From: a virus
IMG/VR virus record: IMGVR_UViG_3300032070_000007
Coordinates: 1-64,000 of that record
Direction: 5' to 3' (one strand)
Length of the DNA stretch: 64,000 nucleotides
The notes under the pieces were generated by a model. That model saw only the letters and a list, made by a program, of their open reading frames with translations. It was not told where the DNA came from and ran no database searches. Positions 15,524 through 52,828 of the stretch are shown piece by piece; position 1 is the stretch's first letter, and each line of letters starts with the position of its first letter. The position numbers and the translations under genes are program-made.

Positions 15524-15524
15524 T

Positions 15525-34900: not shown

Positions 34901-35687
34901 CAAGAACCGTTACAACCTGAATTATCATTGGTGCCATTCCAGCCAATGCGATAAACAGCTGGCCAACTGCTGTTGCCAAATTAGCCAATGCTACTTGTGC
35001 TCCTCTGGTAACAAGGAATTCACTAAGTACAGCTAATACTTTAGTTAAGGTAGGTATTAATGCAACTGCAAGTGATGTCTGTATGCTAGTCCAAACTGCC
35101 TGTAATCCTAACCACAAAGCCTCAACTGCTGGTCCTCGTGAAACTAATGTATCCATAGTATTAGACAAAAGCTTCTGAGTGTCTGATGTTGCAAGTCCCT
35201 GAGTCTCAAGCAACGCTAGCGCATACGCAACGTCCATTAATTTATCAGGCCAGTTAGCGGTAGCCTTTACGGCATCAGTGAAGTACTTAACGAACTGTGA
35301 TAGGGTACGAATTATCCTCTGTAAACTGAATGTAACGATGAAACCAGTGAAACCAACTTTTCTACCGAAACCCGATATTGCCTTACCTAGACCTTCCCAC
35401 TTTTTAACTCCAGCCATTTCTTGCTCTTGTTGCTTTTCCAACATATCAGTAAACATACTATAAGCTGGAGCTGTTCGTCTTACTGCATTAAGTTTTTCTG
35501 CCCAGACTGCACTGGACGCTCTAAAACCCTTTGTCTCATCGCCTAACGAAGCATTGTATTTACGTAATGCCGTGTCAGCAACCAAATACTGCTTGTAAAG
35601 TTTGGCTACTTTCTTTTCCACACCCGCTACTACTTCTGGATTATCCTCTACCCACTCCAGAATAATCTGCATTTTGTCTTCAGCCAT
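31935..35687 (-). CDS. tail tape measure protein with nine GQFG repeats
   Basis: A 1250-residue protein that sets tail length and is threaded through the tail tube. The first 600 residues have the usual plan: long helices, then several hydrophobic segments (about 215-300 and 330-350). The second half is unusual: nine copies of a unit G-Q-F-G-(I/V)-x-R-V-P-(K/R)-x-(G/A)-x-Y-x-L-E-K-G-E separated by 40-90 residues of charged coiled-coil. The unit resembles the single motif (VPxxGxYxLHKGE) found in many tape measures. ATG 35687 overlaps the chaperone T frame by 8 nt. Confidence 0.85.
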   Translation of the reverse strand: MAEDKMQIILEWVEDNPEVVAGVEKKVAKLYKQYLVADTALRKYNASLGDETKGFRASSAVWAEKLNAVRRTAPAYSMFTDMLEKQQEQEMAGVKKWEGLGKAISGFGRKVGFTGFIVTFSLQRIIRTLSQFVKYFTDAVKATANWPDKLMDVAYALALLETQGLATSDTQKLLSNTMDTLVSRGPAVEALWLGLQAVWTSIQTSLAVALIPTLTKVLAVLSEFLVTRGAQVALANLATAVGQLFIALAGMAPMIIQVVTVLAQLLSALGPLLPIIIPLVSVMLMLGMVCSVLGPIFTVLGSTIHFVTEAKKWWLVQTVKNTVAMHHLKLAIVTTISTLAILGVILWGLSQTATASATDISKGFDKLGSSATKMEWTITDANGNIIYTINTLTNDVKDSTGNIIGYYDSMSGSLFTTNDQLIGSINDVTGKFHGMDGSVSDVNKSISDLANLNLSNLTDSIGGLDTSLGNVNSTMNALNWVMGAVAAVSFAELIASIAQIALPATTVNGIIDGILTACETIIYSTIPSLATVFGGFFITAGIAWTALGTQTSLFFQFLEDITGKKYTISFFDSFLERLNEIKGTIEGFLRWLGLATPPATESGYLEPKAAEHGGQFGIKRVPKTGKYQLEKGEKVIATRTYGPVEEEPIESPLVQRIGEIGKDLAIQLATIATPSGQFGIQRVLELGQLEKSVTAKEVYRSVKEAPVITLVKQYVEKSLENEKFVQNFNTVTKQMETIKRERIEAPKGQFGVQKASKANVYQLEKGELIKSVGTYGPTEEESITTLTKRYREVRESPEKKKLTQRLSKTGKDFAKTLKAVTLPEGQFGVHRITTDEATKTTEDISRRKVFEEALKSKEVLKEVFKSREAETVRLEEAISKQLSSKRTELLKEEQVLEGQFGVPIVPEKRRETSGPASLAVGLAKRSAKIVPEKLRERVSVIDKQIQTFEKEWLQTMQKGQFGVQRVRKAEPYKPEKGAEPAKGIVEEPEMLISLALANVGSVLTKVSKQKELVSKFKEIDRQVQVIKEHWLQTHILKGQFGVQRVPKASYYKSEKGEKVKATREYTEVAAKQPLEGPVEVIAERIVKLRQGWEKIWEEPTQGQFGIQRVSESKTHELEKDTKTSENVFTQVSKFEKEVASRVETIEKNLKTSMIEKSLKSLEKIPSGQFGIPRVPRAGRYQLEKGERVESTRDYGPPEEGTVANVVTTTPQIISITNNFEIGTLSTELDAERLGDIVNKKIAEGIRRKRP

Positions 35688-35940
35688 ATTCTTCTTCCTC
35701 GATCTTATCCCTTACAGATTTAGATTTCTTCTTCACGGTAGCCCCTAAAACAGCTGCATCAAAGAAAAGTCTCTCTGCAGCCGACCCGTGAACTTCTGCA
35801 ATATCACAGGGTCGTTGCCCGAGAGTAACAGCAATTGCCCCAACCTGCCTACCTATCAGGCTATTCGCGAAAGGTTTCGTTGTCTTTGAGAGCTTCAGTA
35901 GAGAAGCCTGAGAAGTCGGTGATGATTCCGAACAGTTCAA
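35680..35940 (-). CDS. tail assembly chaperone, second frame (T-like), via frameshift
   Basis: The open frame 35940-35680 overlaps the end of the 137-residue chaperone gene by 80 bp and has no ribosome site; its first codon is TTG. The part past the overlap (about 60 residues, with LGQRPCDIAEVHG and an ERLFFDA helix) looks like the T half of the lambda-like G/GT chaperone pair. The frame lies +1 relative to G. A slip on UUU-C just before the G stop codon (ACC TTT CGC GAA TAG) would join them. The tape measure follows, as in other siphoviruses. Confidence 0.55.
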   Translation of the reverse strand: MNCSESSPTSQASLLKLSKTTKPFANSLIGRQVGAIAVTLGQRPCDIAEVHGSAAERLFFDAAVLGATVKKKSKSVRDKIEEEEYG

Positions 35941-36274
35941 ATTGGTCCTCTATTGGAATGTCGTCAACGTTGATTACAGTATCTGATGACGGGTCAGTAG
36001 ACGATACCTTCGGGTCGATTATACAATTCGGCAGCGCATCCCGCATTGCGAGAATCAGCTTTTCGGTTTTTATCGGGTCTGAAAGTTGTCCTTTCAGATC
36101 CGATTGCATTACATCCATTTCTTTCGATATCTTCATGTCGATAGCGTTGAAGAACTTCGCCATAGCAGGCAGTGGCATTTTTCGAATCTTGTATATGTTT
36201 CCGGATTTACATGTTACGACTTTTGTGGATTTCTTTACCAGCTCACCGGCCGTTGTTGGTTTGTTTTCACTCAC
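35861..36274 (-). CDS. tail assembly chaperone, first frame (G-like)
   Basis: A 137-residue acidic protein with a short beta start (VVTCKSGNIYKIRKMPL) and helices after it, the form of phage tail assembly chaperones. GGAGGTG lies upstream of ATG 36274. It sits between tail tube and tape measure genes, exactly where G is expected. See the overlapping T frame for the probable frameshift product. Confidence 0.65.
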   Translation of the reverse strand: MSENKPTTAGELVKKSTKVVTCKSGNIYKIRKMPLPAMAKFFNAIDMKISKEMDVMQSDLKGQLSDPIKTEKLILAMRDALPNCIIDPKVSSTDPSSDTVINVDDIPIEDQFELFGIITDFSGFSTEALKDNETFRE

Positions 36275-36286
36275 GTTTTCACCTCC

Positions 36287-37282
36287 TCATGCAGTTGCTA
36301 TTTTGTTGATTAGTGTAGCAGCGAACAGATTTGACGAGCCTTCGACAGTTCCTTTGTAACCTTTGAAACTCACTGTCTGCATAATCTTGTCGCGCAGTTC
36401 TATGGGAGCGTCAACTGCTGTCAGTACAACTTTTGGTGCCTGTATCTTTAGTCGATAGTATGTATATTCTCCAGCTCCTCCAGTTACGTCACCCGCGAAG
36501 TTCAAACTTAACGCAACTGCTGCAGGTGCTTGTATTGGTGCTGCATCGGCCTTGACTCCTGTCCAGAACATTCCTTGTGCATTCCAATCAGAGAACAACA
36601 GATCCATTTCACCTTCAAGTGTCCCTTCGCCAGGTGTAAAGCACTTCAGTAGGTAGTCCGTCATAGCATACATGTCGTCCGGAACCTTCCTCGCATAAGT
36701 CAAGCTTATGGCGTCAACACTTGCGATTTCGTCTGACTCTGCCAGATCCCAGTAAATCTTCCCATCTATAGCGAAGAAGGGTCTTACTGTGCTTACCGTA
36801 CCTAATGCAGTGGCAGTAACCTTAGCGTCTTTCTGTGCTAGCATACTAAACGTTGCACTCAGTGGATCACCTGTACGTGCTTCAAATCTTCCACTAATTG
36901 GTATGCAACTCGTGAACTGATGTGCAGAAGCTACTACTGCGCATACGTCTGGTACTTTGTAGAATGTTCCAAACTTCAGCGTATCACTTGGCAAGAACAC
37001 GTGCTTGTATCTGCCGCCTGCATCAGTGGATGTTGTTGGTGCACCCATAAGGTACTTAAGCATCTTGATTAGGTTGTCTGCGGAAGCGTACATCGCAATG
37101 TCTCCTACGCACTTATACTGACCCGGAGCCATATACTGTGGACCAGAGTATATCATGCTTGGCGCTGCGATGAACTCACGTTCTGGGTGCAGGCCTATGG
37201 AGCGAACGTCAAGAAAAGTGGTGGGTGGTGATACTGCCGTACCGAAGACTGTTTCATCAACTATAGCTAGATGTCTTGGCAT
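36287..37282 (-). CDS. major tail (tube) protein, copy 2
   Basis: A 331-residue protein of the phage tail tube type: N-terminal PRHLAIVDETVFGTAV and FLDVRSIGLHPEREF, typical of tube proteins that begin with an ETxxG element, then a beta-rich core. It is a close paralog of the gene just upstream (37296-38300), identical over most of the first 75 residues and diverging mainly after residue 80 and at the C-terminus. GGAGGTG precedes ATG 37282. Confidence 0.75.
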   Translation of the reverse strand: MPRHLAIVDETVFGTAVSPPTTFLDVRSIGLHPEREFIAAPSMIYSGPQYMAPGQYKCVGDIAMYASADNLIKMLKYLMGAPTTSTDAGGRYKHVFLPSDTLKFGTFYKVPDVCAVVASAHQFTSCIPISGRFEARTGDPLSATFSMLAQKDAKVTATALGTVSTVRPFFAIDGKIYWDLAESDEIASVDAISLTYARKVPDDMYAMTDYLLKCFTPGEGTLEGEMDLLFSDWNAQGMFWTGVKADAAPIQAPAAVALSLNFAGDVTGGAGEYTYYRLKIQAPKVVLTAVDAPIELRDKIMQTVSFKGYKGTVEGSSNLFAATLINKIATA

Positions 37283-37295
37283 TTAATCACCTCCC

Positions 37296-38300
37296 TTATG
37301 GTGCTGTGATCCTGTTTTGTAGTGTTGCAGACAGCAGGTTGGTACTACCCGAAACAGTTCCACGATATCCCTTGAAGCTTACAGTTTGCATGATCTTATC
37401 GCGTAGTTCAATTGGTGCATCGACAGCGGTTAGAACTATGTTCGGACATAGTATGCGACAGCGGTATTTTAGAAGTACGGCTGGTGCCGGCAAAGCATCA
37501 CCGTTGAGGTCGAGATCCAATGCAACTGGTACTGGCGCTTGTATTGGTCCTGCACCACTTGAAACTCCTGTCCAGAAGTATCCTTGCGCGTCCCAATCTG
37601 AGAACAGTAGATCCATTTCACCTTCCAAAGTTCCCTCGCCTGGCACAAAGCATTTGAGTAGATAGTCGGTCATTGCGTACATATCATCAGGTATCTTTCT
37701 CGTGTAGGTCAGACTTATAGCGTCAACGTTCGTTATTTCCGGAGTTTGACCTGGTTGAGCCCAATAGAGCTTTCCATCGATTGCGAAGAATGGTCTTACG
37801 GTACTGACTGTTCCTAATGCTGTTGCTGTAACCTTTGCATCTTTTTGTCCGAGCATACTGAAAGTAGCACTAACTGGATCGCCTGTACGAGCTTCAATAC
37901 GCATGCTGATTGGAATGCAGCTGATGAACTGATGTGCACTAACGACAGCAGCACACACATCTGGTACTTTGTAGTATGTTCCGAACTTTAGAGTATCAGA
38001 GGGTAAGAAAATGTGCGAATAGTTTCCTGTAGCTCCATCCTGCGCTGAAGTTGGCGTTCCACCAAATAGATGCTTGAACAGTTTCATTAAGTTGTCAGCA
38101 GATGCCCACATTGCGATATCGCCTACGCATTTGTACTGTCCAGGAGCCATGTATTGCGGACCGGAATAGATCATACTAGGTGCAGCAATGAATTCTCTTT
38201 CTGGATGTAGGCCTATGGAGCGAACGTCAAGAAACGTTGTCGGCGGCGTCACTGGGGTTCCAAATACGGTCTCGTCTGCTATTGCTAGATGTCTTGGCAA
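37296..38300 (-). CDS. major tail (tube) protein, copy 1
   Basis: A 334-residue tail tube protein, paralog of the next gene. Shared marks include ADETVFGTPV, SMIYSGPQYMAPGQY and the C-terminal RDKIMQTVSFKGY. Differences cluster in the loops (positions about 80-100 and 270-290), as would be expected for surface variation. GGAGGTGAAAG precedes ATG 38300, which lies 74 bp inside the upstream small gene. One copy may form the tube and the other a special ring or decoration. Confidence 0.75.
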   Translation of the reverse strand: MPRHLAIADETVFGTPVTPPTTFLDVRSIGLHPEREFIAAPSMIYSGPQYMAPGQYKCVGDIAMWASADNLMKLFKHLFGGTPTSAQDGATGNYSHIFLPSDTLKFGTYYKVPDVCAAVVSAHQFISCIPISMRIEARTGDPVSATFSMLGQKDAKVTATALGTVSTVRPFFAIDGKLYWAQPGQTPEITNVDAISLTYTRKIPDDMYAMTDYLLKCFVPGEGTLEGEMDLLFSDWDAQGYFWTGVSSGAGPIQAPVPVALDLDLNGDALPAPAVLLKYRCRILCPNIVLTAVDAPIELRDKIMQTVSFKGYRGTVSGSTNLLSATLQNRITAP

Positions 38301-38460
38301 TTTCTTTCACCTCCTCTACAATTTCAAACTGGCCAGATTCGATCAATATTTCAGCTTTTTCTAGGGGTACTTCTTTAACTTCGCCTGGCACGAAGTTAAT
38401 GCCTTGTGCTTCACCAGCATAGGCCCCGTTGTATTTCACGAACACTTTGTCTTTCACCAT
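38227..38460 (-). CDS. hypothetical protein, 77 aa
   Basis: ATG 38460; beta-rich first half (VFVKYNGAYAGEAQGINFVPGEVKEVPL) resembling small phage head-tail or Ig-like proteins of the kind that starts with K-V-K-x-(I/V). The last 25 residues overlap the tube gene and look less structured. Position between tail terminator and tube genes suggests a virion or assembly part. Confidence 0.45.
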   Translation of the reverse strand: MVKDKVFVKYNGAYAGEAQGINFVPGEVKEVPLEKAEILIESGQFEIVEEVKEIAKTSSNSRRDRIWNPSDAADNVS

Positions 38461-38464
38461 TTTC

Positions 38465-38905
38465 TCATGTCCTTATTTTATGGACGATGATACGCAGTCC
38501 TATCCAGTGTCCCTCAACACCTTCACCAAGACCCCTCCAGTTGGGTATTATTTGTTGCGCTTCGAGACCACATGCTGTACTACTGAGGGTTCTATCTGCA
38601 ATCAACGCGTCGTAGATTTTACCGACCAACTCGAGGAGTGTCATATAGCCTTGTTTGGGGTCAGGATCGTTGACCACTATTCCGAAATCAAAAACAAAGT
38701 CATTGATATCGGAAAGGAATGTTAGAGGCTTAACGTTTATTGGTAACGGGCAAACGTAGCAACTGGGGTAGTTATCGGGTGGGTATTTTTCGCCGTAAAA
38801 GACGTGACTGTTGAAGACTTTGTTTCCATCAGTGTCTTTTAGTCCATCAGCTAAGGTGACTAGTGCATCCCAGACTGCAACGTAATCAGCATACCATGTG
38901 GTCAT
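38465..38905 (-). CDS. probable tail terminator (gpU-like) protein
   Basis: A 146-residue alpha/beta protein: N-terminal helix (YVAVWDALVTLADGL), strand SCYVCPLPINV, then FVFDFGIVVNDPDPKQGYMTLLELVGKIYDAL and a final strand IGLRIIVHKIRT. This pattern and its place between the gp10-like neck gene and the tail tube are those of tail terminators. Overlaps its upstream neighbour by 4 nt. Confidence 0.6.
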   Translation of the reverse strand: MTTWYADYVAVWDALVTLADGLKDTDGNKVFNSHVFYGEKYPPDNYPSCYVCPLPINVKPLTFLSDINDFVFDFGIVVNDPDPKQGYMTLLELVGKIYDALIADRTLSSTACGLEAQQIIPNWRGLGEGVEGHWIGLRIIVHKIRT

Positions 38906-39666
38906 GTGTGAAAACCTCGTTTAATTTCATCGAGAGTGAATTGGAGTGCTAGTGGTTTCAAAGCATTAATCATTTTTTGGCGGAAGTGGTGGGCTTTGAT
39001 TCCGGGATGAGTACCAATATCTTTACGCTGTTGTGCTGCAACCTTTGCTAGATACTCTGCCCTACTCTCTATACTTTTACCAAAAACCGCACTCTCCTGC
39101 TCCCTAGCTTTATGCTGAACAGCATGAGCCAATTCATGTCGTAGAGTAGCTTCTTTATGTGGTCCACCCATAGCAATCTCAATTGATCGAGTTTTAGTAT
39201 CATACACCCCATAGGCTTCTATGTTGGGATATCCTGGAGTACGACTTTTGGCAAGGAGTATAGATTTACCAGGCAACTCTTTAATAGGCGTAGTTAGTGC
39301 AGCCCTTGCCTCTATAGCAGTGTATCCTCGATATTGGGCAGCTCTAAAAACCTGACGTCTCGGTGACATTTCTTTATTAACTAAACGTTTGCCAATTGCT
39401 GGTACATACCTACCCGTACTCTCCCCAGTACCTTCATCAACAAACATCGCATACGGAGCATCCCAATAAAACCTTACTGACCTCTCCGTCTGCTCACTCC
39501 TAAACGATGATTGGAGTTCTCCAGTTTTGCCCTTAGGAACTATCTCAACATTCAATCGGTTAGCTTCTTCAACTACCCTAGTAATCGCATTATTAATGAG
39601 TGCACCCGGCTTTACATTAATCCACCGTACCTTTCCGCTCACGTTTAGGGTAAGTCGAGCACTCAT
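38902..39666 (-). CDS. HK97 gp10-like neck protein with inserted metalloprotease domain
   Basis: A 254-residue protein. Residues 1-95 match gp10-type head-tail joining proteins (TGELQSSF, then YAMFVDEGTG near 72-81) and 218-250 match their end (THPGIKAHHFRQKMINAL). Between them lies an insert of about 120 residues with HELAH at 177-181 (LRHELAHAVQHKA) and, about 20 residues on, IESRAEYLA whose Glu could be the third zinc ligand. This is the layout of a gluzincin peptidase. The joining role is inferred from sequence and gene order; catalytic activity is predicted from motif only. Confidence 0.7.
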   Translation of the reverse strand: MSARLTLNVSGKVRWINVKPGALINNAITRVVEEANRLNVEIVPKGKTGELQSSFRSEQTERSVRFYWDAPYAMFVDEGTGESTGRYVPAIGKRLVNKEMSPRRQVFRAAQYRGYTAIEARAALTTPIKELPGKSILLAKSRTPGYPNIEAYGVYDTKTRSIEIAMGGPHKEATLRHELAHAVQHKAREQESAVFGKSIESRAEYLAKVAAQQRKDIGTHPGIKAHHFRQKMINALKPLALQFTLDEIKRGFHT

Positions 39667-40600: not shown

Positions 40601-40912
40601 CTATGCAGTTGGTTCCTTATCTACCACTTGCCAAACAAACTCTAGAGTATGTTCGACAACTCCAGCTTTTTCGAACACGAACATTCCATAGTAGGTACCG
40701 GGAGTAACGTTAAAGTCAGCAGCGATGGGTACGAAAGTGATTCTAGTGTCTGGATTAATGAAGGCGATTGTACAGCTTTTACCGTCAATAATTTTGGTTG
40801 TTCTCGCTTTATTCCAGACGTATATTTTTCCAGTGCAGTCACTGTAGTTCACATTTTCAACTACCCCGGTGTATCCTCGACCGCAGTCTCCTTTTACTAT
40901 TTCGAAACTCAT
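40601..40912 (-). CDS. small beta-sandwich virion protein, 103 aa
   Basis: Mostly strands (IVKGDCGRGYTG, KIYVWNKA, ITFVPIAADF, GTYYGMFVFEKAG, HTLEFVWQVVD), in an Ig-like arrangement similar to BppU-N-type phage modules that describe gain or loss in strands. ATG 40912. Follows the giant repeat protein by 2 bp. Possibly its partner or a decoration protein. Confidence 0.45.
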   Translation of the reverse strand: MSFEIVKGDCGRGYTGVVENVNYSDCTGKIYVWNKARTTKIIDGKSCTIAFINPDTRITFVPIAADFNVTPGTYYGMFVFEKAGVVEHTLEFVWQVVDKEPTA

Positions 40913-40914
40913 TT

Positions 40915-43900
40915 TTAATACTTCCTTGCGAATTTGAGTATTTTCTTAACTACCTTTGACTCAAGTATCTTATCAGCTAGTTCGATAGTTAGTGTTCGGT
41001 TAGCTAGTTTAAGGATCTCAATCATTGCAACAATTACTTTCGTAGCAGTACCAACTGTTGCTATGGTCATTGTTGCTGACGCGTAGACAAAGAACTCTAG
41101 GAAGAACTTTCTTCCTTTAGCTATAGCTGTAGTGGTAATTTGGGCAGTCACTTTTCTGATGCTCTGGAAAGTTCGCTTCGTGCTTCCGATTAACGTTACA
41201 TTAGAGCTTATGATTCTTTGTATCACGAGTCTTCTGATTGTTGTGCCAGCTTGTACTAAAGTTGCAACACCAATTCGAACAACTGTTCGAAGTCGTCCGG
41301 CATTACTTACCAAACTCAGAGTTGCCGCTCTAGCTCGCTTAAACACCGTAATCTTTGTGATAGTCGCTGCCATTAACAGTGTTACAGATCTGAAGCGTAT
41401 TACAACAGCTGACCTTTTGATTACTGCAGCTAAGTTCAATGTTGCTGAGACCAATCTGAAGAAGGCTCTTGCACCTAAGGCAGAAGCTGACATCGCCATA
41501 GAAGCAGTCGTATGCTTAATAAGTGTGCTGACTCTATGGGCAGTTGCTGCAACTGTTACAGTGATAGAAGCGAATCGAGTTACTATTATGCCACGAGCTG
41601 TATTTCCTACCATCGTTAAAGTTGCTGATGCTACTGCAACAAGTCCAGATAGTATTTCAGCAGTTCCGTGAAGGACAACTCCTGCAGAAGCGAATCGTGT
41701 AATGATGATTGCTCGGAAAGTACTTCCGGCAGTAACTATTGTTGCTACTGCGCGCCTTATGACTAGACGCGTTGTCTCTGTAAGGGCAACTAATGATACT
41801 CCTGCAACTGCTTTGCGTACCGTAGCGTACAATCTTGTTGGTACACCCAATATGCTAACAGCTGCCGTAACTCCTCGTGTAAGTATCAGCTGTTTTGCAG
41901 TTGTAGCACTGAGTGCTATTGAACTTGCGATGTTTCTAGCTAATGCCGTCAATCTTCGTGGAGTTCCGACTAGACTGATTGAAGCAGCATTTAACTTGGT
42001 TATTATGACTGATCGCATTGCTGCAGCACTAGAGGTAATACTGGCACTCGCAATTGCATACAGTCCGCTCAGTGCTGCAGTGATACCAGTTATGATAACA
42101 CTTACTGATGCGAATCTTGTCACTATAATGCTTCTTAAGCTTGTGCCAACCATGGTTAGCGAAGAGATTGCAGATCGAACTTTGTTCGCAACACGTACAG
42201 TTGTACTGGCGGTAGCTATTGCCGCAATTGTTGACCTAATGGATATTGAAATTCGCGTAGCGGTACCAACAAGCGTTGTTGTAGCTGAAACTACCCGAAT
42301 GAATATGCTACTTTTCATAGTAGTAGCTGCTATGCTAATTGCGCTTGTTGTGAACCGAAGAGCTCCTTTCAGTCTACTTGCAACTCCTACTACGCTAAGG
42401 GTAACTACGCCGAATCTGGTTACCACAATTGTCCTTACTGCTGTGGCTGCAGTATTGATACCTGCACTGGCAACAGCAAATATTCCGCTTAGCAAGTTAA
42501 CGATGCCAACTATGCTAACACTTGCGGATGCAAATCTTGCTACTATGATACTTCTTAGACTTGTGGCTGTCGCAACTATTGAAGAGGTTGCGAATCGAAC
42601 TTTAGCCGCGAAATATGCAGCTGTTCCGGCAGTAGTTATAGATGCAACCACGGATCTAATCTTGATTAGAGTCCGTATAGCTGTACCAGAGAGAGTTGTT
42701 GCAGCTGTAGCCATTCTTGTAAATATACCGTTACTGCGAACGGCAGTAGCAACTACACTGAGTGTGCTTGTGGCGGATCGGAAAGCTCCTGCAAACCTAC
42801 TTGCGACTCCAATGAGGCTAACTGAAACGGCATTGAATCTGGTTACTATAATCGACCTGACTGCAACTGCTGTAGTAGTGATGCTAGCACTAGCAGTGGC
42901 TATCAATCCGGCTAGTACCTCAATTGCTGCTGTTATGCTTGTAGCAGCTGCTGAGAACCTTATCATAACTATCTGACGAACTGCTTGCCCAACTGTTATA
43001 ACACTTCCTGCTACAGCTCTTGTTGCACTTACTATCCTACCCGTTACAGCGTTAGTAGCAATTCCAGCAGTCACTCCTCTAATCTTAGTCAAAAGTCGTA
43101 CAGTTGTACCTGCTATAGTCATAGTACTGGATACTTTCTTAATGAGTGCCGCCATCCGTGATGTTGTTCCTAATATTGTGACTGCAGCAGTTGTGAGTCT
43201 TGTTGCTACTACTAACCGAATGGTGGATCCGATGGCAGTAATTGATGCGACGTTAGCTCGTGAGAATAGGACATTACGAACCACAGATGCAGTAGTTTGT
43301 ATTCCAGCAGCTACATCTCTGAAGAACGCCCTTGCTCCTAGTACACTTCCTACTAAACTGACTCCGGCGGCTTTGGTTCTGATCGCAATGATACTTCTGA
43401 TAGTCACTCCAGCTGTAGCGATTGACGCTGTTACACTCCGTATCTTGGCTTGAAGTGCTTTAGTAGCAGCCGTTAAGGAAAGTGAACTGGCAATCAAACG
43501 AACTATTGTCAGCGCTTTGCTAGTAGCTCCTGTAACTGTAACAGCTGCCGTTGTTATCCTCAACATGAGAAGTCTTCGCAAAGTTGTAGCAGCAATAGTG
43601 GCTGTAGCCGTTACTGTTCTAAAGCTAGCTTGTACCCTGTTAGCTGTGCCAACCATTGTTAGGGTGATTGTAGCAAATCTTACCCGAAGAACTGACCATG
43701 CTGCATTTCCAACAGCTGATAGGGTAGCTGTATTAAAGCGAGTTTTGAGAGCATTCCGAATAGTACTTCCAGTTGCAGTTATCGAGCTACTTATAAGTCG
43801 AGTGAAGTAAACAATCCTTTTAGCTGTTCCGGTAACCGATACTGTTGCACTTAGAAGTCTATAGATAACTATGGAACGTATTGTTGATCCTAAAGGTCTG

Positions 43901-45504
43901 ATAACAGCTGTCGCGTACCGGAAGAACTCTTTTGGTACTCTACGACACCATGCAGTACCTGCTAGAACGAAAGAACTAGCTGCTTGTCTAAAGCGATGTC
44001 GTATTCTAGAAGCCGATCCAGCTATCGTAAAGCCGCTTGCTAAAAGTCTAGATAATATAGTAGTTCGCATTGTGCTACCAATCATAGAGATAGCTTCAGC
44101 TGCTTTTCGTGTAGCACTTTTTATACCTGCAACTATGCCAGTAAAATTGAGGGCACTAGAAATAAGTCTGGTAGATACAACTTGTCGAGCAGCATTACCG
44201 ATAGTCGTAACGGTGCTGGCTACTGAACGTAGTAAGCTAGTCAGTCGCTGTGTAACTGCAGAAATGCCGATTGATGCCGAACTATATCGTGGAGAGTTTC
44301 GAAGACGCCATGTGGTACCAGCTAATCCAATTGCTGTAGTTGTTGTTCTTACCACATTAATTAATCTAGCAGACTGCCCGATAAGATTAGTTGAGACGGC
44401 CTTTGCGCGAACTAGATTCAACAATCTTGCTGTATTAACAGTTCCAGAAATTGCTGCACTAGCCTTTCTAACGAAAGCAGTTATCTTAGTTGTTGTAGCA
44501 GCCAACCCTATTGTGGCAGTTCTTATCCTAATAGCCAACATTATTCTGAGAGCAGAACCAGCTAGTGCTATAGCTGCGGTCTTTATGCGAATTAGAAGTA
44601 AAGTCCTCGCTGCACTCGCGACAATTCCTAATCCGACGCTTGAGAACCTTGTTAAAACTGCCGTTCTAGCTACAGTTCCAACTTGAGAAAGTGTACCAGT
44701 AGTAGATCGTGATGCCATTAGAATCTTACCGGTTAAACCAGCAACTGAGGTAACTGCAGTAGATACCCTTATTGCTAGCAAACTCTTCAGGGTTGTTGCT
44801 GTTGTTGAAATTGTAGCAGTAACCGCTCTCAGATTTACTCCTAGTCGCTTTGTTGTTCCAACAATTGCCAATGTTCCGGCAGTTGCCCTTGTTGATACTC
44901 CTAGTCGCTTTGTTGTTGCAGAAAAAGTGGAAATGCCTGAGGACTTTCGAAATCCGATAAGTGACTTACCGCTAATACCTACTAAACCAACAGCTGCAGC
45001 CTTTACGCGAACCAGCAGTAGAGTCCTTGCTGCACTTGCGACAAAGGCAACGGATGAACTCGCTATTCGAAACCCACCTAAAGCTCTACCGCTGTTTCCT
45101 GCTAAGCCGACAGATGTAGGTAGTTTCCGAGTGAGAGTAGTCGATCGGATTGCATTTCCTGCCGTAATCATTGCTACAGTTGCTAGTCTTTCGTACAAGC
45201 TGATATCGACGTTTTTATAGCCGGTCGGAACTGGTAAACCAGTACCAGTGACAGCTGTTTGTTTCGTAACTCCTTGAGCTGTAACTTTCACTACATCGTT
45301 TTCGGCGTAGTCCGATGTGAATTTGGTTTTGTCACCTAAATCTACATAATATTTTCCACTGCTATCTGACGTTGCTGCGTATTGCTCGCCTTTCGTATCG
45401 TTTCTTATTGTGACTGAAACACCTACCTGTATGACACCATTAAGTTTTAGTATTCCTCTAATGACATACGGGTTTTGTGTTGTCACGGGTACGTATGCCT
45501 CCAA
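40915..45504 (-). CDS. giant 20-residue-repeat protein (about 66 repeats)
   Basis: A 1529-residue protein. Residues 1-105 are a CarboxypepD-regulatory-like beta domain (IRGILKLNGV, SDSSGKYYVDL). From about 112 to about 1440 the sequence is a chain of 20-residue units: R-x2-(S/T)-A-x-(I/V)-x-(L/I/T)-x-G-(S/T)-(A/T)-x-R-x-(I/L)-x-x-(T/V). Each unit carries one or two Arg and almost no acidic residues, so the whole repeat part is strongly basic. Two interruptions carry aromatic inserts (KEFFRY, KFFLEFFVYA). The C-terminus is helical. It is in the late operon between connectors and surface proteins; probably a fibre or a DNA- or envelope-binding scaffold. No known family recognised. Confidence 0.7.
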   Translation of the reverse strand: MEAYVPVTTQNPYVIRGILKLNGVIQVGVSVTIRNDTKGEQYAATSDSSGKYYVDLGDKTKFTSDYAENDVVKVTAQGVTKQTAVTGTGLPVPTGYKNVDISLYERLATVAMITAGNAIRSTTLTRKLPTSVGLAGNSGRALGGFRIASSSVAFVASAARTLLLVRVKAAAVGLVGISGKSLIGFRKSSGISTFSATTKRLGVSTRATAGTLAIVGTTKRLGVNLRAVTATISTTATTLKSLLAIRVSTAVTSVAGLTGKILMASRSTTGTLSQVGTVARTAVLTRFSSVGLGIVASAARTLLLIRIKTAAIALAGSALRIMLAIRIRTATIGLAATTTKITAFVRKASAAISGTVNTARLLNLVRAKAVSTNLIGQSARLINVVRTTTTAIGLAGTTWRLRNSPRYSSASIGISAVTQRLTSLLRSVASTVTTIGNAARQVVSTRLISSALNFTGIVAGIKSATRKAAEAISMIGSTMRTTILSRLLASGFTIAGSASRIRHRFRQAASSFVLAGTAWCRRVPKEFFRYATAVIRPLGSTIRSIVIYRLLSATVSVTGTAKRIVYFTRLISSSITATGSTIRNALKTRFNTATLSAVGNAAWSVLRVRFATITLTMVGTANRVQASFRTVTATATIAATTLRRLLMLRITTAAVTVTGATSKALTIVRLIASSLSLTAATKALQAKIRSVTASIATAGVTIRSIIAIRTKAAGVSLVGSVLGARAFFRDVAAGIQTTASVVRNVLFSRANVASITAIGSTIRLVVATRLTTAAVTILGTTSRMAALIKKVSSTMTIAGTTVRLLTKIRGVTAGIATNAVTGRIVSATRAVAGSVITVGQAVRQIVMIRFSAAATSITAAIEVLAGLIATASASITTTAVAVRSIIVTRFNAVSVSLIGVASRFAGAFRSATSTLSVVATAVRSNGIFTRMATAATTLSGTAIRTLIKIRSVVASITTAGTAAYFAAKVRFATSSIVATATSLRSIIVARFASASVSIVGIVNLLSGIFAVASAGINTAATAVRTIVVTRFGVVTLSVVGVASRLKGALRFTTSAISIAATTMKSSIFIRVVSATTTLVGTATRISISIRSTIAAIATASTTVRVANKVRSAISSLTMVGTSLRSIIVTRFASVSVIITGITAALSGLYAIASASITSSAAAMRSVIITKLNAASISLVGTPRRLTALARNIASSIALSATTAKQLILTRGVTAAVSILGVPTRLYATVRKAVAGVSLVALTETTRLVIRRAVATIVTAGSTFRAIIITRFASAGVVLHGTAEILSGLVAVASATLTMVGNTARGIIVTRFASITVTVAATAHRVSTLIKHTTASMAMSASALGARAFFRLVSATLNLAAVIKRSAVVIRFRSVTLLMAATITKITVFKRARAATLSLVSNAGRLRTVVRIGVATLVQAGTTIRRLVIQRIISSNVTLIGSTKRTFQSIRKVTAQITTTAIAKGRKFFLEFFVYASATMTIATVGTATKVIVAMIEILKLANRTLTIELADKILESKVVKKILKFARKY

Positions 45505-48500
45505 TAGCCAGCCACGTTACAGAGAATATAGAATTTTCCGTCTGAAGTAACTGGAACTGTTGCGTCTCCACCCCAATCTGGAAAGAATACGTAGCGTGTG
45601 CCGTTCGCGTACTCGAAAACAAATTCAACGTAGTTGATTGAATCAGTGTAGAGACTTGTATTTACCTGACTCAACGTATGTCCGACGTCAGCCGTGCATG
45701 TAGTGAAGCTGTTCCATCCAACTGTTAAAGGAGTACGCGCCAACACATGAATGTATTGAGTTGTTGTGTTTGCCCAGTTATTGTTGGTATCATTTGCGAC
45801 TATATACCATGCGATATAACATTCTGTTGCTGGTAATGTCCGCGTGAAGTTGCTCCACGTTGCAGAACCACTCAGATTTAAAGTTCCGTTTTGCTGCATT
45901 GTTCCGCTGCTGTTCCAATAGAAGAGTGAACAGTTCATGCCAGTGAATGACTGCCAATAAGTTCTGAAAGTTACGTTTAGATTGATGTATGTGTCGCCGT
46001 CCACTCCGACATTCGAAACCACTATCGGATAGAAATATTTTCTTCCAGTGGGTAAATCTCCCAATCTAGTAACATCTGTTATTCCTGTCCATGAACTGTT
46101 GAATGCGACACTGTAAACGCCCGAACTTGCAAATTTGTAATCAACTGGAACGCCACCATAGATAAAACGCAAAGCACCTTCAGCGCAGATGCTTGTCTTG
46201 ACAGTTCTCGCCGTCATGTTTATTCCGAACAGTTCTGGGTCAACATCGTATGCGTCAACATAAGTCATTTCTTGGAGCGGAAAGGCGATGGTAGTGTTTA
46301 TCGGTATCATTCCCGTAATTAAGTGTTGCATTAAAGCTCGGATTGTTGCAGTATCACTTGTTGTAGCATCATTGCTAGTCCATTTGAATTGTTCGGTTGC
46401 GGGCACAAAGCACCATCCGTTAGGCTGATATAAGCTATACCACACTTCTTTCAGCATGTCCTTCATGTTGTCTTGTGCGGTAGAGTTCAAAACCGAATAA
46501 ACGCCGAGAAACGTAGCCCATGCCGAAGGAGTATCCAATAAACGTCTTTGTGGATTGCCCGTATTGAAGTGAATCACATAATAGGTCGATTCTGTTGGAG
46601 TCAATGAAGTCGTCCATTGTGGAGAGAGCCATTCGTTTTCGAAAAAGCGTTGATATGTATCTTCGGTGAGTCTATCTGCGTATGGAATGTCTGATTTAAA
46701 CCATCTTAACATAGCGATGATTCGCAAAAAGTACGCGCCCGAACATTCGTAACCTAAAGTGAACGGTTGATATTTGAAATATCTATCCGTATCATTCCAA
46801 TAGTTATCATTGAGGTAACCCCAAACGTCAACCGCATCGTCTAACGCGCCCGTTACGCCGAGTTCATGGAATACAAGATAGGACGAGAGCGTTGATGCTG
46901 CCTCATCGTAGAATCTATTCATAAAGGTAGTAGCGTTGCCGTCTGCGAACACCACCCAAGTTATGTGTTGGTTCGTGGTGTTTACGTGGATGGCGTCTCT
47001 GAAAAAGTTCCACGCCTTCGTCTTGTTCCATTTATCGGTCAAGTAGCCAAATTTTTCGGCGTAATAGTAACAAGAATATAGAACGTCTCTGTTAGCGACG
47101 CGATAGCAACCTTTGCCGTCATACGTGTAAGTAAACGGGAGTTCGCCTTCTTTCGTCAAGTTCCCTAGCGCATACTTTATCGATTCTTCCCTTTCGATCC
47201 CAAGCTTCGCCAGTCTTGTCGACCATTCCAAGACACCAACCCAGTCGGTTTGCGCGGCTAGAGAATCTATCATGGATTCAAGGTCGGTCACGTTTGTCTT
47301 TCCGAAAAACAAGCCATAGTACGAGCTTCCTGTTTCCGTCCAATTCAATGCTTGCGCGTCCAGATAGAAACGGAGTCTATTCACTAAAGTCCAACTGTGA
47401 ACGTATAGGCGCGCATAGTCTATCTGGAAAAGCGTGGCTGAATCATTTGACAAGAACCGTACTTTTAAACCGCTAAGTAGCGCTGGACTCCAAGAAGACG
47501 GCGTAAGCGTTCCGTTCATTACCGTCCATGTTGTCGCCGTAGTCGCATAGGTGACGTTGTACCAAGAAGTTGTGTTCCAAAATTCAGCGATGATGGTGCT
47601 TGCGGTGACATTTTTGGAGAAGTTAAGTTCCAATTTCAGTTCAATGACCCATTGGTACTCGAAAGTGGAAAGCGTTGGAAAAGTGAAGTTGCCAGTGCGG
47701 TTTCCGCTGTATTCGGTTTTCAAGTAGTTGGTGGGATAATCGGCAGCGCCAAGCCACGGTGCTGCCCCTACCGCCGTCCAGTTGCCATTGTCCGAACCGT
47801 TTATCGCGACCGTGTTCCAGTCCGTATAGCCGTCATACGTTACGGTGAGACTCTGCAACCCCGTCGTGTTCCAATTGTCACTCGTATCGTTAAACCATTC
47901 TTGCCATTGAACCGTCGTGCCCACCGTGGCGTTTAGCGTCTTAGTTTTGTTGCCCCAGTCTGGAGTTGTTGTGAACGCTGTCCAAGTTTCGTTTTGCCAC
48001 GCACCCGTGTTGTTAGTTCCGTATATGAAGCCGCCAGTAGTTGCTAGTCCCGTTTCATCCGTGCATTTCGCATAGAAATTGGTTGGTTGCCCAGTAAAGG
48101 TTGAATTTGTAGCGACATCCGAATAAGTAGGCGGTCTAATGTCGAGAAAGCGAGTGTAAGAGCAATAGATGCTGAAGTTATACTCAGGAGAACTGCTAGG
48201 AACGTATGGATTGGGAAAGCCGTCGCTTTCTTCATAGGCTTTGTTTTGAAGTTTGCCTCTAGACACGTTCAGCGTAAGATCATAGGCCGCATACACGTTG
48301 TTGTTTGCGCCCCAGTATTCAGCCCATACCACAAGAAGATAGTCCTTGTATGCGAACATGCTTGGTTTCGGAGTTGAGAAATTGAAAGTGTACCAGACGA
48401 AACTTGTGGTCAGTGCAATGTAGACTTGTTGTGTTTTACCGACAAAAACCAAATCCGCATAGTTGTAGATCGCACATTTGGCATAGGTCGATGCGGCAGC

Positions 48501-49241
48501 CGCCCCTTTCAACGCGACTGTCATGTTTTCTGCTCTGCCGTCTTCGGTGATGTTAAAGACAGTGCCAGCAATGTATTCAGAAGTGTTAAACGATATGAGA
48601 GTGGAAGAAGCACCCAATGTTGTTTTTCCAAGGTTGGCAGTGTTCGACACCGTGTAGGTGCAATAGATGCTGAGTTTTTCGTCATAATGCGATGGAACAA
48701 ACGGGTCTGGAAAACCGTCGTAAGTTGATGAGCTTTTATAATGTTCTTGATTCGTATCGCCCATGTTGTACGCGACACAGCAAGTTCCCGCTAGACTTTG
48801 CGCCCACGCTTCCAAAAGATATTCCGTGCCACCCACAATGGCGGGAGAACCACTGAAGTTGAATTGATACCATGTCGCCACGTTTGTCAGCGCGATGGTG
48901 CGTTCAGTCGTTGCGGCAAGCAGACTCAGGTTGCCGTGGAAGTAAATTGCGGTCTTTATCTTTCCCGTCCACGCCGAACTTGTCCATCGTATCGCGACAT
49001 ACATGCAAGTGGCGATGCCGCTTTCGGTGGCGGTGAACAAACTGCCGTCAATCTGATTTTCAATGGTTTGAGTGCTTGCGCCTATCGTTTCATAACCAAA
49101 GTTTCTCGTTGTTCCAGTCGACGGCGTCGGCGGAAACAAGATTGGAATCGCAAAGAACGAAGCTAAGAAAACGATTATGATTGTGACGGCCGCTATGAGC
49201 CAACGTTTGAACTTTACAAGTTTCGCTTTCACTTTTTCCAT
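45483..49241 (-). CDS. membrane-anchored giant surface protein with (alpha/alpha) barrel-like middle
   Basis: A 1253-residue protein from ATG 49241. Residues 12-35 are a TM anchor (LIAAVTIIIVFLASFFAIPI). Two homologous beta domains of about 165 residues follow (each starting GASTQTI or GASSTLI and ending IYCTY/IYCSY), then Ig-like parts, then at about 650-1020 a helical section rich in Trp/Tyr (LYSCYYYAEKFGYL, LSSYLVFHELG) that recalls six-hairpin glycosidases, and C-terminal beta domains. It has dozens of N-x-S/T sites. By eye it is richer in G+C than its neighbours, suggesting acquisition. Role in attachment or sugar cleavage is inferred. Confidence 0.6.
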   Translation of the reverse strand: MEKVKAKLVKFKRWLIAAVTIIIVFLASFFAIPILFPPTPSTGTTRNFGYETIGASTQTIENQIDGSLFTATESGIATCMYVAIRWTSSAWTGKIKTAIYFHGNLSLLAATTERTIALTNVATWYQFNFSGSPAIVGGTEYLLEAWAQSLAGTCCVAYNMGDTNQEHYKSSSTYDGFPDPFVPSHYDEKLSIYCTYTVSNTANLGKTTLGASSTLISFNTSEYIAGTVFNITEDGRAENMTVALKGAAAASTYAKCAIYNYADLVFVGKTQQVYIALTTSFVWYTFNFSTPKPSMFAYKDYLLVVWAEYWGANNNVYAAYDLTLNVSRGKLQNKAYEESDGFPNPYVPSSSPEYNFSIYCSYTRFLDIRPPTYSDVATNSTFTGQPTNFYAKCTDETGLATTGGFIYGTNNTGAWQNETWTAFTTTPDWGNKTKTLNATVGTTVQWQEWFNDTSDNWNTTGLQSLTVTYDGYTDWNTVAINGSDNGNWTAVGAAPWLGAADYPTNYLKTEYSGNRTGNFTFPTLSTFEYQWVIELKLELNFSKNVTASTIIAEFWNTTSWYNVTYATTATTWTVMNGTLTPSSWSPALLSGLKVRFLSNDSATLFQIDYARLYVHSWTLVNRLRFYLDAQALNWTETGSSYYGLFFGKTNVTDLESMIDSLAAQTDWVGVLEWSTRLAKLGIEREESIKYALGNLTKEGELPFTYTYDGKGCYRVANRDVLYSCYYYAEKFGYLTDKWNKTKAWNFFRDAIHVNTTNQHITWVVFADGNATTFMNRFYDEAASTLSSYLVFHELGVTGALDDAVDVWGYLNDNYWNDTDRYFKYQPFTLGYECSGAYFLRIIAMLRWFKSDIPYADRLTEDTYQRFFENEWLSPQWTTSLTPTESTYYVIHFNTGNPQRRLLDTPSAWATFLGVYSVLNSTAQDNMKDMLKEVWYSLYQPNGWCFVPATEQFKWTSNDATTSDTATIRALMQHLITGMIPINTTIAFPLQEMTYVDAYDVDPELFGINMTARTVKTSICAEGALRFIYGGVPVDYKFASSGVYSVAFNSSWTGITDVTRLGDLPTGRKYFYPIVVSNVGVDGDTYINLNVTFRTYWQSFTGMNCSLFYWNSSGTMQQNGTLNLSGSATWSNFTRTLPATECYIAWYIVANDTNNNWANTTTQYIHVLARTPLTVGWNSFTTCTADVGHTLSQVNTSLYTDSINYVEFVFEYANGTRYVFFPDWGGDATVPVTSDGKFYILCNVAGYWRHTYP

Positions 49242-49741
49242 TTCGCCACATTCTCCTTCGTCGTATAGGCGTGCTTCCGATTGAAGCAGTACCACAGTTT
49301 CCAGTTAGGTGGAATAGTTTTTAGTGAAGGATTTGTCCAGTCTAGCACTGTATTATATAATGTAACGAAAACGTGGTAACTAGTGCCGGTATCATAGACG
49401 TTTACTAAAACGTCGTAATACGGTATGGTCTTTTGCGCCAAAATCATGTTCGCTAGAAGAATCGCACCATCTTCACAGTCGCCGAACTTATCCGCTAGAG
49501 TTTCATTCGGGAAGTTCCAGTAATCTTTATTCCTGTCATCTTTATTCCAGTCTGGCTTATACTGGATGTTTGCAGCAACCCATTCTAACAACGTCTGGTT
49601 CGGTTGTAACTCAACAGACACACTTTTGTTTAGAAAGTCCACTACATTGATCGGTTCACGTCGTTTAGTGCGTTCGATCATTTGGACTCGTGTAAGTCCA
49701 AGCTTACGCATCTTCAACCATTCGTTGAACCAATCGCACAT
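49229..49741 (-). CDS. transglutaminase-like cysteine peptidase-fold protein
   Basis: A 170-residue protein with the order ETLADKFGDCEDGAIL (nucleophile Cys), TSYHVFVTL (His) and VLDWTNP (Asp), the triad of the transglutaminase/NlpC-like superfamily. The N-terminal 50 residues are basic and helical. Overlaps the giant surface-protein gene by 13 bp, so the two are co-translated and may work together, for example cross-linking or processing a surface protein. Activity is predicted from motif order. Confidence 0.75.
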   Translation of the reverse strand: MCDWFNEWLKMRKLGLTRVQMIERTKRREPINVVDFLNKSVSVELQPNQTLLEWVAANIQYKPDWNKDDRNKDYWNFPNETLADKFGDCEDGAILLANMILAQKTIPYYDVLVNVYDTGTSYHVFVTLYNTVLDWTNPSLKTIPPNWKLWYCFNRKHAYTTKENVAKWKK

Positions 49742-51010
49742 TTACGTCACCATCCATGCGTATCGATTGTACGCATCTTTTGTGTCATCCTGTAAATCAA
49801 AGATATTGCGACCTTTGAAGAACTCGGCTGCTTGTGCCCTGTATTCTGCAAAGTGCATATCGTCCAATATGATTACTTTACTATTAAGTGATGGAAACAG
49901 TGGTGCACGATCCTTTTCAGCAAGTCCGAGGTCAAGGAGCGTTAAATCGTACTGCATGTTTCCAACTGCCACTTCATCGAGTAGAAACATTCTATCAGTA
50001 GATAGCTTATGCTGAGTTAGAAACTGCCTAGTTTTCTCTAACCATGCAGGATCAGTATCTACTGTTGTAACTTCAGCCCCTGATTGTCTGAAAAGAAAGG
50101 ACGAGAATCCGGAACCGAGATCCAGAATCTTCTTCGGCTTCAGTGACCTTAACAACTTATCCAGATATACGCATAGTTCCCACGAAATAGTCCATACTGG
50201 ATCTGAGACCCCTTTAATATACTCCAGGTACGCTTCTTTCAACCCTTCCGGAGGTTTGTAACCTATAGTGTCCCTAGCCATCCTGAGTTGATATTCAGGA
50301 ATACCGGCTAGTTGCAACTCTTCAGGTGTCAAGTTCATCTCTTTCATCAGTAGCTCTCTGAAATGGTCTAATCTACCTTCACTACGGAACCTCTTAACTA
50401 CGTTCCAGAGTACATTCATCTCATAGGTTTCGTTGGTGACTACATATGGGGTCGCAATATGTCCAAGGTTGAGACCGGTATCAACGTATACTTGGAAATC
50501 GAACTTCTTAGCCTTTAAGCAAAAGTAGATATCTTCCTGTGCATTACCTTTTTCATAGCACTGAAACCACGGTCGAGGTACTTTCTCGAATACTTCTCGC
50601 TTGATGAGCATGAAGCCGGTTCCAACCATATCAACCGGCATGATTTGATTATAGGGGAACGGTAATGGTGTCCTGTAAATACGTCGTTCGGGTACCCAAA
50701 AACCAAAACAGGGGACGTGATCTCCACCTTTCTTGTAGACAGTCGCGCCTATGATGGGCTTGTCAGCTTTCAGCAACTTCTCTATTGCACCAGGAACACC
50801 AATGGTATCAGAGTCCCAAAAGAGTAAATGTGTACAGTCGGTTGCCAGGAACTTCTCTACACACTTGTTTCGTTTCTCATCAATCGGTATAGTGTATCCT
50901 GATTCTACATGTATGTTGGTAATATGTTCCCCAGAGGTTTGGAGTATGGACTCTAACACTAACGGATGCATTTCCCTAAGAATAGGGATGGCCAGGAAGA
51001 CAGAAGGCAT
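49742..51010 (-). CDS. glycosyltransferase (GT-A) fused to SAM-dependent methyltransferase
   Basis: A 422-residue two-domain enzyme. The N-terminal 225 residues are a GT-A fold: start VFLAIPILREMHP, metal-binding DSD in LLFWDSDTIG (about 64-73), then GTGFMLIKREVFE and EDIYFCLKAKK. The C-terminal 130 residues are a Rossmann methyltransferase: motif I KILDLGSGFSSFLF, acidic end of strand two TTVDTD, and a later YDLTLLDLG. It could glycosylate and methylate a virion or host surface glycan. It precedes the transglutaminase-like gene with no gap. Confidence 0.78.
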   Translation of the reverse strand: MPSVFLAIPILREMHPLVLESILQTSGEHITNIHVESGYTIPIDEKRNKCVEKFLATDCTHLLFWDSDTIGVPGAIEKLLKADKPIIGATVYKKGGDHVPCFGFWVPERRIYRTPLPFPYNQIMPVDMVGTGFMLIKREVFEKVPRPWFQCYEKGNAQEDIYFCLKAKKFDFQVYVDTGLNLGHIATPYVVTNETYEMNVLWNVVKRFRSEGRLDHFRELLMKEMNLTPEELQLAGIPEYQLRMARDTIGYKPPEGLKEAYLEYIKGVSDPVWTISWELCVYLDKLLRSLKPKKILDLGSGFSSFLFRQSGAEVTTVDTDPAWLEKTRQFLTQHKLSTDRMFLLDEVAVGNMQYDLTLLDLGLAEKDRAPLFPSLNSKVIILDDMHFAEYRAQAAEFFKGRNIFDLQDDTKDAYNRYAWMVT

Positions 51011-51025
51011 AAAAAAACCTTCCGT

Positions 51026-51592
51026 CTAGCTCAGCGAAATCTTGTCCCACTTTGCTGTCAGCTGGTCGTCAGATTCGAGGGCCACAGGCGTAAATGTTGC
51101 TTCGAAGTACATGTCACCTGCTGATGCGGAGTCAAACAATCCCATTAGTTGGGCGGCAGCGACAGTTGCAGTTGCTGTGAAAGTCTTCGATAGTATACAC
51201 TGCCCAGTGCTACAGTCTACAACACTATAGGTTCCTTCTGCTCGTGCAAGACCTGAAAGTGTGATTTCTGCAGCTAATAGGGTGTGTGTTGCATTTGGTG
51301 CCCCAGCACTTTCAGACAGGGCAATATACTTCGCTACGGTCTGCGTAGTTGCAGTATTGAACAGACGATCTTTCGCAGCTTCCAAACCTGTATTATTGGT
51401 AACGTTGTGATTCTCATAGACTTCAACTTCTTCGTTGTAGATTACTTTTCCGTCCTCATCTCTCAATGCAATACGTGTCTTCGGATCTCGTTTTGCTCTG
51501 CGAACTTCAAGGACAACTCTGTTTGGACCGATGTGCATTTGTGGTTGCTGAGATTTCCTAGCTCCTCCTAATAGACCAAATATGTTTCTCAT
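51026..51592 (-). CDS. virion structural protein, 188 aa
   Basis: ATG 51592 has AAGGAGTG at normal spacing; the in-frame GTG at 51601 is too close to it. After a basic N-terminus, a beta domain with YIALSESAGAPNATHTLLAAEI, LARAEGTYSVVD and TFTATATVAAAQLMGLFDS resembles a pattern common in phage tail-fibre or head-fibre proteins. Function inferred only. Confidence 0.5.
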   Translation of the reverse strand: MRNIFGLLGGARKSQQPQMHIGPNRVVLEVRRAKRDPKTRIALRDEDGKVIYNEEVEVYENHNVTNNTGLEAAKDRLFNTATTQTVAKYIALSESAGAPNATHTLLAAEITLSGLARAEGTYSVVDCSTGQCILSKTFTATATVAAAQLMGLFDSASAGDMYFEATFTPVALESDDQLTAKWDKISLS

Positions 51593-51660
51593 TCTTTCCA
51601 CTCCTTTTATGTTCTTACGGCTTCTCGGACTGCCAGTTTGAGCTGTGCTGTCTCGAGCCG

Positions 51661-51912
51661 TTAGATTCTCTCTATACCGGATTTAATGATTAAACCTAGA
51701 CAGGTGAATGCGAAACTGATTGTAAGGAACTTCCACCTGTCCAACTTTACTTCTTTTTTCACTCGTGTATTTTCCGCCAAGTTGTTTGCTTGTACTATAT
51801 CGTTGAACTTAGCGTCAAGGTCTGCGATCTTCTTTACTATCCCACTAGTGAGATCAGGGCCGATAATAGCATTTTCTATCCTACTCAGTGAAGTTTGTAT
51901 GGGCGTCATCAC
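51661..51912 (-). CDS. coiled-coil protein with C-terminal TM helix, 83 aa
   Basis: A helical N-terminal part (IVKKIADLDAKFNDIVQANNL) ends in a basic stretch and a TM helix (FLTISFAFTCLGLIIKSGI). No ribosome site is visible and the start (GTG 51912 or ATG 51909) is uncertain. Topology fits a spanin- or holin-like protein; family not recognised. Confidence 0.45.
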   Translation of the reverse strand: MMTPIQTSLSRIENAIIGPDLTSGIVKKIADLDAKFNDIVQANNLAENTRVKKEVKLDRWKFLTISFAFTCLGLIIKSGIERI

Positions 51913-51973
51913 TGCCGAGCATTCTGTATGGGTTACGCATCCGCCATCCTTTTTGCTCGTGTACTCAATCCCC

Positions 51974-52731: not shown

Positions 52732-52828
52732 GTTTTTTCACTCCTTATTGGGGAATATCAGTGGAATATAATGCCTCCACTACGGCCGAGTGAACTTAAA
52801 AATGGCGTCACTCAAACCTAAAGGATTA

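What the first reader, a model, noticed from the sequence alone, without database searches (positions are those of the whole stretch)
40915..45504. Giant basic protein made of about 66 twenty-residue repeats
From about residue 112 to 1440 an Arg recurs every 20 residues with a fixed pattern of small, hydrophobic and Gly positions, and acidic residues are nearly absent. Unit length is constant, with two aromatic insertions. The period of 60 bp also creates long empty frames on the other strand. A 20-residue lattice suggests a solenoid or a long helical fibre; the charge suggests contact with DNA, lipid or acidic glycans. It sits in the late operon beside a transmembrane giant protein. No known family comes to mind.
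Basis: seen in the sequence. Interest (0 to 1): 0.8.

Follow-up and report, generated by a model that had tools for sequence, protein, structure and literature searches.

The report
Swappable repeat fibre of archaeal viruses
In a tailed virus, probably of archaea, a 1,500-residue protein built of 68 twenty-residue repeats proves to be one version of an exchangeable part: related viruses keep the same small head domain but carry quite different repeats behind it, in the most variable stretch of otherwise near-identical viruses, which points to a virion surface fibre that changes to meet its host.

Summary
The repeat is real: 68 units of 20 residues (aa 101-1464), two basic positions per unit (6 and 20), far above shuffled controls. 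The protein resembles no Pfam, NCBIfam, PHROGs, PDB or named-phage sequence. The array is only part of the protein. Before it sits a ~95-residue beta-sandwich domain (CarboxypepD_reg/CnaB-like) conserved in all twelve. Behind it come different repeats of about 14 to 20+ residues, with net charge from -15 to +15 per 100 residues. The type of repeat does not follow the type of head domain (Mantel r=0.04; AU test p=1e-5). The head domain instead tracks the C-terminal domain of the upstream membrane-anchored, sequon-rich protein (r=0.81, p=0.0002). Two viruses with most core proteins 92-100% identical (TerL 100%) fall to 34% in that membrane protein and 54-60% here. Best explanation: a modular, non-exported virion fibre/adhesin shaft at a hypervariable host-interaction island, with a conserved hub between two variable arms. 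The charge-based DNA/lipid reading fails because charge is not conserved. Fold, virion location and binding partner remain unproven (AlphaFold pLDDT about 50 on the repeats).

The parts
40915..45504 (-). Repeat protein, longest frame 1529 aa; probable start GTG 45486 (1523 aa)
   Evidence: coding under purifying selection
45205..45486 (-). N-terminal hub domain (aa 7-100), CarboxypepD_reg/CnaB-like beta sandwich, conserved in all 12 loci
   Evidence: (homologue L008, pLDDT about 90 or more)
41113..45204 (-). Array of 68 units of 20 residues (aa 101-1464), Arg/Lys at unit positions 6 and 20; breaks at aa 521-523 and 924
40918..41112 (-). C-terminal tail (aa 1465-1529), nearly identical in L002 and recognisable in L011
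45483..49295 (-). Upstream membrane-anchored, sequon-rich ectodomain protein; hydrophobic segment about aa 36-54; variable ectodomain; overlaps the repeat gene as GTGA
45486..45743 (-). Conserved C-terminal domain (about 86 aa) of the upstream protein, co-inherited with the hub domain
49229..49741 (-). Transglutaminase-like protein (PF04473), upstream member of the conserved gene order
40601..40912 (-). First downstream gene (103 aa); its lineage goes with the repeat type

Best explanation
The gene encodes the repeat-shaft protein of an exchangeable virion appendage (a fibre or adhesin) of tailed, probably archaeal, viruses. Shown: a conserved ~95-residue N-terminal domain (beta sandwich by prediction) followed by a repeat array; whole repeat types are exchanged behind that domain between related viruses; the locus is the most diverged part of the virion gene block between two otherwise near-identical viruses. 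Inferred: the array folds as a long, probably beta-rich, fibre; the protein is not exported by the Sec route (no N-terminal hydrophobic segment, no sequon enrichment) but built into the particle, at the head or neck judging from gene order; the N-terminal domain is a docking hub, possibly for the conserved C-terminal domain of the membrane-anchored protein encoded just upstream; the repeats set length, charge and surface chemistry and are replaced by recombination to match the host's surface layer.
For: Syntenic loci with the same N-domain and different repeats. AU test p about 1e-5 against one clade of the N-domains that carry basic 20-mers. Island of divergence between viruses at 97% nt identity on both flanks, together with the C-terminal half of the LamG tail protein. 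Synonymous divergence in the island far above flanks with dN/dS below 0.55: replacement by diverged alleles under purifying selection. The same pattern sets host range in haloarchaeal hafunaviruses (PMC8651126), and head-borne structures make first contact in archaeal virus HFTV1 (PMC12494034; PMC9973310). N-domain like those of pilins and adhesins. L004 repeats match a tail-fibre PHROG, E 2e-9.
Against: No virion proteomics. No confident fold for the repeats. Repeat type follows the neck/tail lineage and the N-domain follows the membrane protein, not the usual fixed-anchor, variable-tip pattern seen from the virion side. A membrane protein in the same cassette is unusual for a tailed-virus appendage. 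The host is not identified.
Confidence: 0.5

Rival explanations
1. The membrane protein and the repeat protein form a two-component structure on the infected cell (superinfection exclusion, cell-cell adhesion or egress) rather than a virion appendage; the two conserved domains dock to each other.
For: Co-inheritance of the two conserved domains (r=0.81); GTGA overlap; membrane anchor and sequon excess of the partner.
Against: The repeat protein has no N-terminal hydrophobic segment and mostly no sequon excess, so how it would leave the cell before lysis is unclear; adjacent position alone may explain co-inheritance.
Confidence: 0.2
2. An internal head or neck protein that sets a length or stiffness (scaffold or ruler) without host contact.
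For: Strict unit length within a type; position beside neck genes; repeat type travels with the neck/tail lineage.
Against: Length differs between viruses with related necks and tubes (1529, 1459 and 798 aa for window, L002 and L011). A separate tape-measure candidate exists (31935-35687). Rulers should not be hypervariable between near-identical viruses.
Confidence: 0.12
3. A basic protein that coats or ejects with viral DNA or binds lipid or acidic glycan.
For: Net charge +11 per 100 residues, Arg at two fixed positions per unit.
Against: Syntenic relatives with the same N-domain have net charge from -15 to +15.
Confidence: 0.06
4. Translation artefact or non-functional repetitive DNA with fortuitous open frames.
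For: Long open frames also lie on the opposite strand.
Against: dN/dS 0.23-0.51 over the array, synonymous sites much more diverged than replacement sites; conserved overlap and start in relatives.
Confidence: 0.01

Closest known systems
Hypervariable tail-fibre adhesins of haloarchaeal Hafunaviridae (PMC8651126)
   Same: Adhesin in a hypervariable region; viruses of one species (>95% identity) carry different adhesins; host range follows the adhesin.
   Different: There a glycine-rich tail-fibre protein and a small protein; here a CnaB-like hub plus repeats of several kinds, paired with a membrane protein, between capsid and neck genes; no sequence similarity found.
Head fibres and turrets: HFTV1 turret (PMC12494034), phage 7-7-1 capsid fibres (PMC12796354), phi29 head fibres
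   Same: Virion appendages on the head that contact the host first; gene position beside head genes fits.
   Different: HFTV1 turret has base and deacetylase-like head proteins; phi29 head fibre is a helix-turn-helix supercoil (title cited in PMC9973310); no sequence match to PDB.
CarboxypepD_reg / CnaB-like domains of pilins and adhesins
   Same: Fold class of the N-terminal hub domain.
   Different: Pfam scores stay below the curated cut-off; the domain here is a distinct, conserved viral group.

Membership tests
CarboxypepD_reg (PF13620), N-terminal domain only | Profile score above the curated cut-off | tested here: not met
   9 of 10 members match, best E 1.2e-5, but the full-length proteins and the window domain score 13.6-22.9 bits against a cut-off of 32.3
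CarboxypepD_reg / CnaB-like fold, N-terminal domain only | Compact beta sandwich of about 80 residues | tested here: met
   L008 model: six strands, pLDDT about 90 or more; Foldseek lists CnaB/Ig-like domains but best E only 0.005, so fold class only
Hafunavirus tail-fibre adhesin | Lies in a hypervariable region between near-identical viruses | tested here: met
Hafunavirus tail-fibre adhesin | Sequence homology to named archaeal tailed-virus proteins | tested here: not met
   tblastn against 50,697 phage records, which include haloarchaeal tailed viruses: no match at E <= 1
Hafunavirus tail-fibre adhesin | Determines host range | not testable with these tools
   needs viruses and hosts in culture
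Head fibre or turret of tailed viruses | Present on the capsid of the virion | not testable with these tools
   no proteomics or EM; position between capsid and neck genes only suggests it
Known repeat families (Pfam, NCBIfam, PHROGs, PDB sequences) | Match of the 20-residue array to any repeat or fibre model | tested here: not met
   only the 14-mer relative L004 matches a tail-fibre PHROG
Beta-solenoid proteins | Stacked beta coils in a confident model or structure | tested here: inconclusive
   model all-beta but pLDDT about 50; Foldseek hits mostly beta-helical, best E 0.3

The most novel reading that the evidence does not exclude
Probability: 0.25. Interest if true: 0.8.

Novelty: new variant of a known kind. 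Interest (0 to 1): 0.6.

Why it matters
Receptor-binding parts of uncultivated archaeal viruses are almost unknown. If this reading holds, the hub domain is a sequence tag that finds the host-interaction island in such viruses from metagenomes. The island also offers a natural experiment: near-identical viruses with the shaft or ectodomain exchanged. And it shows one anchor domain carrying repeats of about 14, 15, 18-20 and 20+ residues of opposite charge, useful for asking what a repeat fibre must conserve.

Tried and rejected
AlphaFold of the window array (aa 1224-1529, in-register alignment of 13 rows) gave pLDDT 50, and of L008 gave confidence only in the N-domain; I draw no fold from the repeats. 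First alignments with overlapping segments slid out of register and were discarded. tblastn hits of L004 repeats to Klebsiella tail fibres were checked in phage Sushi: the match lies on the strand opposite to the tail-fibre gene, so I discount them. Hydrophobic-moment analysis was not decisive, being dominated by the Arg lattice. Positive selection rejected: dN/dS 0.23-0.51. Scans of prokaryote genomes and named phages found no relative, so the host is not assigned. Bathyarchaeial virus families were considered but no link was shown. Profile search of the partner and of the hub domain against PDB sequences: nothing.

Full report
Observation. The ORF at 40915-45504(-) is as described. A 20-residue period is far above chance (identity at lag 20 is 0.228 against 0.105 +/- 0.0075 in shuffles) and a unit profile finds 68 units from residue 101 to 1464 with breaks at 521-523 and 924. 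The unit has two basic positions, 6 and 20. The DNA no longer shows tandem repeats, so the units are old; L010 and L004 still show DNA-level repeats, so arrays keep growing in relatives. The likely start is GTG 45486, overlapping the upstream stop as GTGA with GGAGG 11 nt before it.

The virus. G000 is a 66.9-kb virus record with a large terminase, two tail-tube genes, a candidate tape-measure gene, a LamG tail protein, family B DNA polymerase, an ERCC4-domain nuclease, and QueC/FolE2-type genes. The polymerase is closest to Halorubrum tailed virus 27 among named viruses; with the ERCC4 domain and the sequon-rich membrane protein this suggests an archaeal host, but none was assigned.

Relatives. 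No named phage, PDB entry, Pfam, NCBIfam or PHROG family matches the protein. Scans of IMG/VR with the protein, with its N-terminal ~100 residues and with the C-terminal domain of the upstream protein gave eleven further loci. In each the order is transglutaminase-like gene (where the contig reaches), membrane-anchored ectodomain gene, then a protein with the same N-terminal domain, then downstream genes that in most loci look like neck genes. Behind the N-domain stand about six kinds of repeat: basic 20-mers (window 1529 aa, L002 1459, L011 798); DSxxGxE 18-20-mers, acidic to weakly acidic (L003, L005, L008, L023); 14-mers SDAAVKATQTLTKT (L004); about 15-mers VDAVLKKxGV (L009, L025); 19-mers TRPFRFMKLTQNLNTSHTL (L010); and a loose 20+ type (L012). 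Net charge of the repeat part runs from -15 to +15 per 100 residues. L010 repeats still align with L008 (E 7e-25), so some types are diverged versions of one another.

Modularity. N-domain identity is 75% between window and L005 and 77% between L010 and L011, yet their repeats do not match; window, L002 and L011 share repeats (38-58%) but have N-domains of three different lineages (35-48%). The AU test rejects a single clade for these three N-domains, p about 1e-5, alone or with the partner's C-terminal domain. N-domain identity does not predict repeat type (Mantel r=0.04, p=0.35) but does follow the C-terminal ~86 residues of the upstream protein (r=0.81, p=0.0002). Repeat type goes instead with downstream genes: window, L002 and L011 share them at 54-100%, L009 and L025 mostly at 43-55%. 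The exchange point therefore lies at the junction of N-domain and repeats. Outside the conserved C-terminal domain the upstream ectodomains are themselves exchanged: L008 and L023 share 90% in that domain and 85% in the N-domain but only 38% over 118 residues of ectodomain. The picture is a conserved hub, spanning the junction of two overlapping genes, between two variable arms.

Hypervariable island. The virus behind L002 is very close to the window virus: 97% nucleotide identity at 49739-52882 and 32963-39020, TerL 100%, polymerase 97%, the compared part of the tape-measure candidate 98%, tubes 98-99%. Between these stretches the membrane protein falls to 34%, the repeat protein to 54-60% and a neck gene to 58%. 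The other strongly variable virion gene is the C-terminal half of the LamG tail protein, the expected place for a tail-tip adhesin; some small early genes also differ or are missing. Synonymous divergence in the repeat gene is high (0.36-2.3 by segment, where it is not saturated) with dN/dS 0.23-0.51: replacement by diverged alleles under purifying selection, not hypermutation. Haloarchaeal hafunaviruses show the same behaviour for an adhesin that sets host range (PMC8651126).

Structure. The N-domain of L008 is predicted with pLDDT about 90 or more as a six-stranded sandwich; Foldseek lists CnaB/Ig-like domains of pilins and adhesins, none better than E 0.005, and Pfam gives sub-threshold CarboxypepD_reg in 9 of 10 members. 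The array could not be folded: pLDDT about 50, all-beta, Foldseek hits mostly beta-helical but not significant. I treat a beta-rich fibre as likely but unproven.

Compartment. The upstream proteins carry N-terminal hydrophobic anchors where the start is held, and sequons well above expectation in most loci (window 46 against 16.4 +/- 3.3), which fits exposure outside the cell; repeat proteins have no such segment at their start and mostly no sequon excess (window 4 against 8.4; L010 is above expectation). The repeat protein thus probably stays in the cytoplasm until assembly. With its place between capsid and neck genes this favours a virion part over a cell-surface part. Whether the two conserved domains bind each other is open; neighbouring position alone could explain co-inheritance.

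Verdict. The repeat is real and belongs to no described family; its meaning lies in the modular locus. Working like an exchangeable virion fibre is the best reading (0.5). Membership in a named family is not claimed.

Noticed in passing
38902-39666 (-): Neck-type gene with an in-frame insert of about 110 residues holding HELAHAV (zinc-peptidase-like HExxH motif); present but diverged in L002 (58%), absent in L011, whose version is 143 aa.
   Followed up: partly
49229-49741 (-): Transglutaminase-like gene (PF04473) stands directly before the membrane-protein gene in the loci that reach it, with what looks by eye like a conserved Cys-His-Asp set; role unknown.
   Followed up: no
36287-38300 (-): Two adjacent tail-tube genes about 77% identical; L011 has only one.
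   Followed up: no
14646-16448 (+): FolE2-type and QueC genes, hinting at 7-deazaguanine modification of DNA or tRNA.
   Followed up: no
26586-31331 (-): LamG tail protein: first 798 residues 89-90% identical to the L002 virus, the last 385 only 55%: a second variable spot, probably the tail-tip adhesin.
   Followed up: partly
49742-51010 (-): Fusion-like protein with glycosyltransferase-like and methyltransferase-like matches, 99% conserved next to the variable island.
   Followed up: no
L008:6673-8292, L010:8265-9917, L025:7989-9521: Lags of about three units (56, 56, 44) rank first or second among all repeat lags, hinting at three-unit super-repeats in these types.
   Followed up: no
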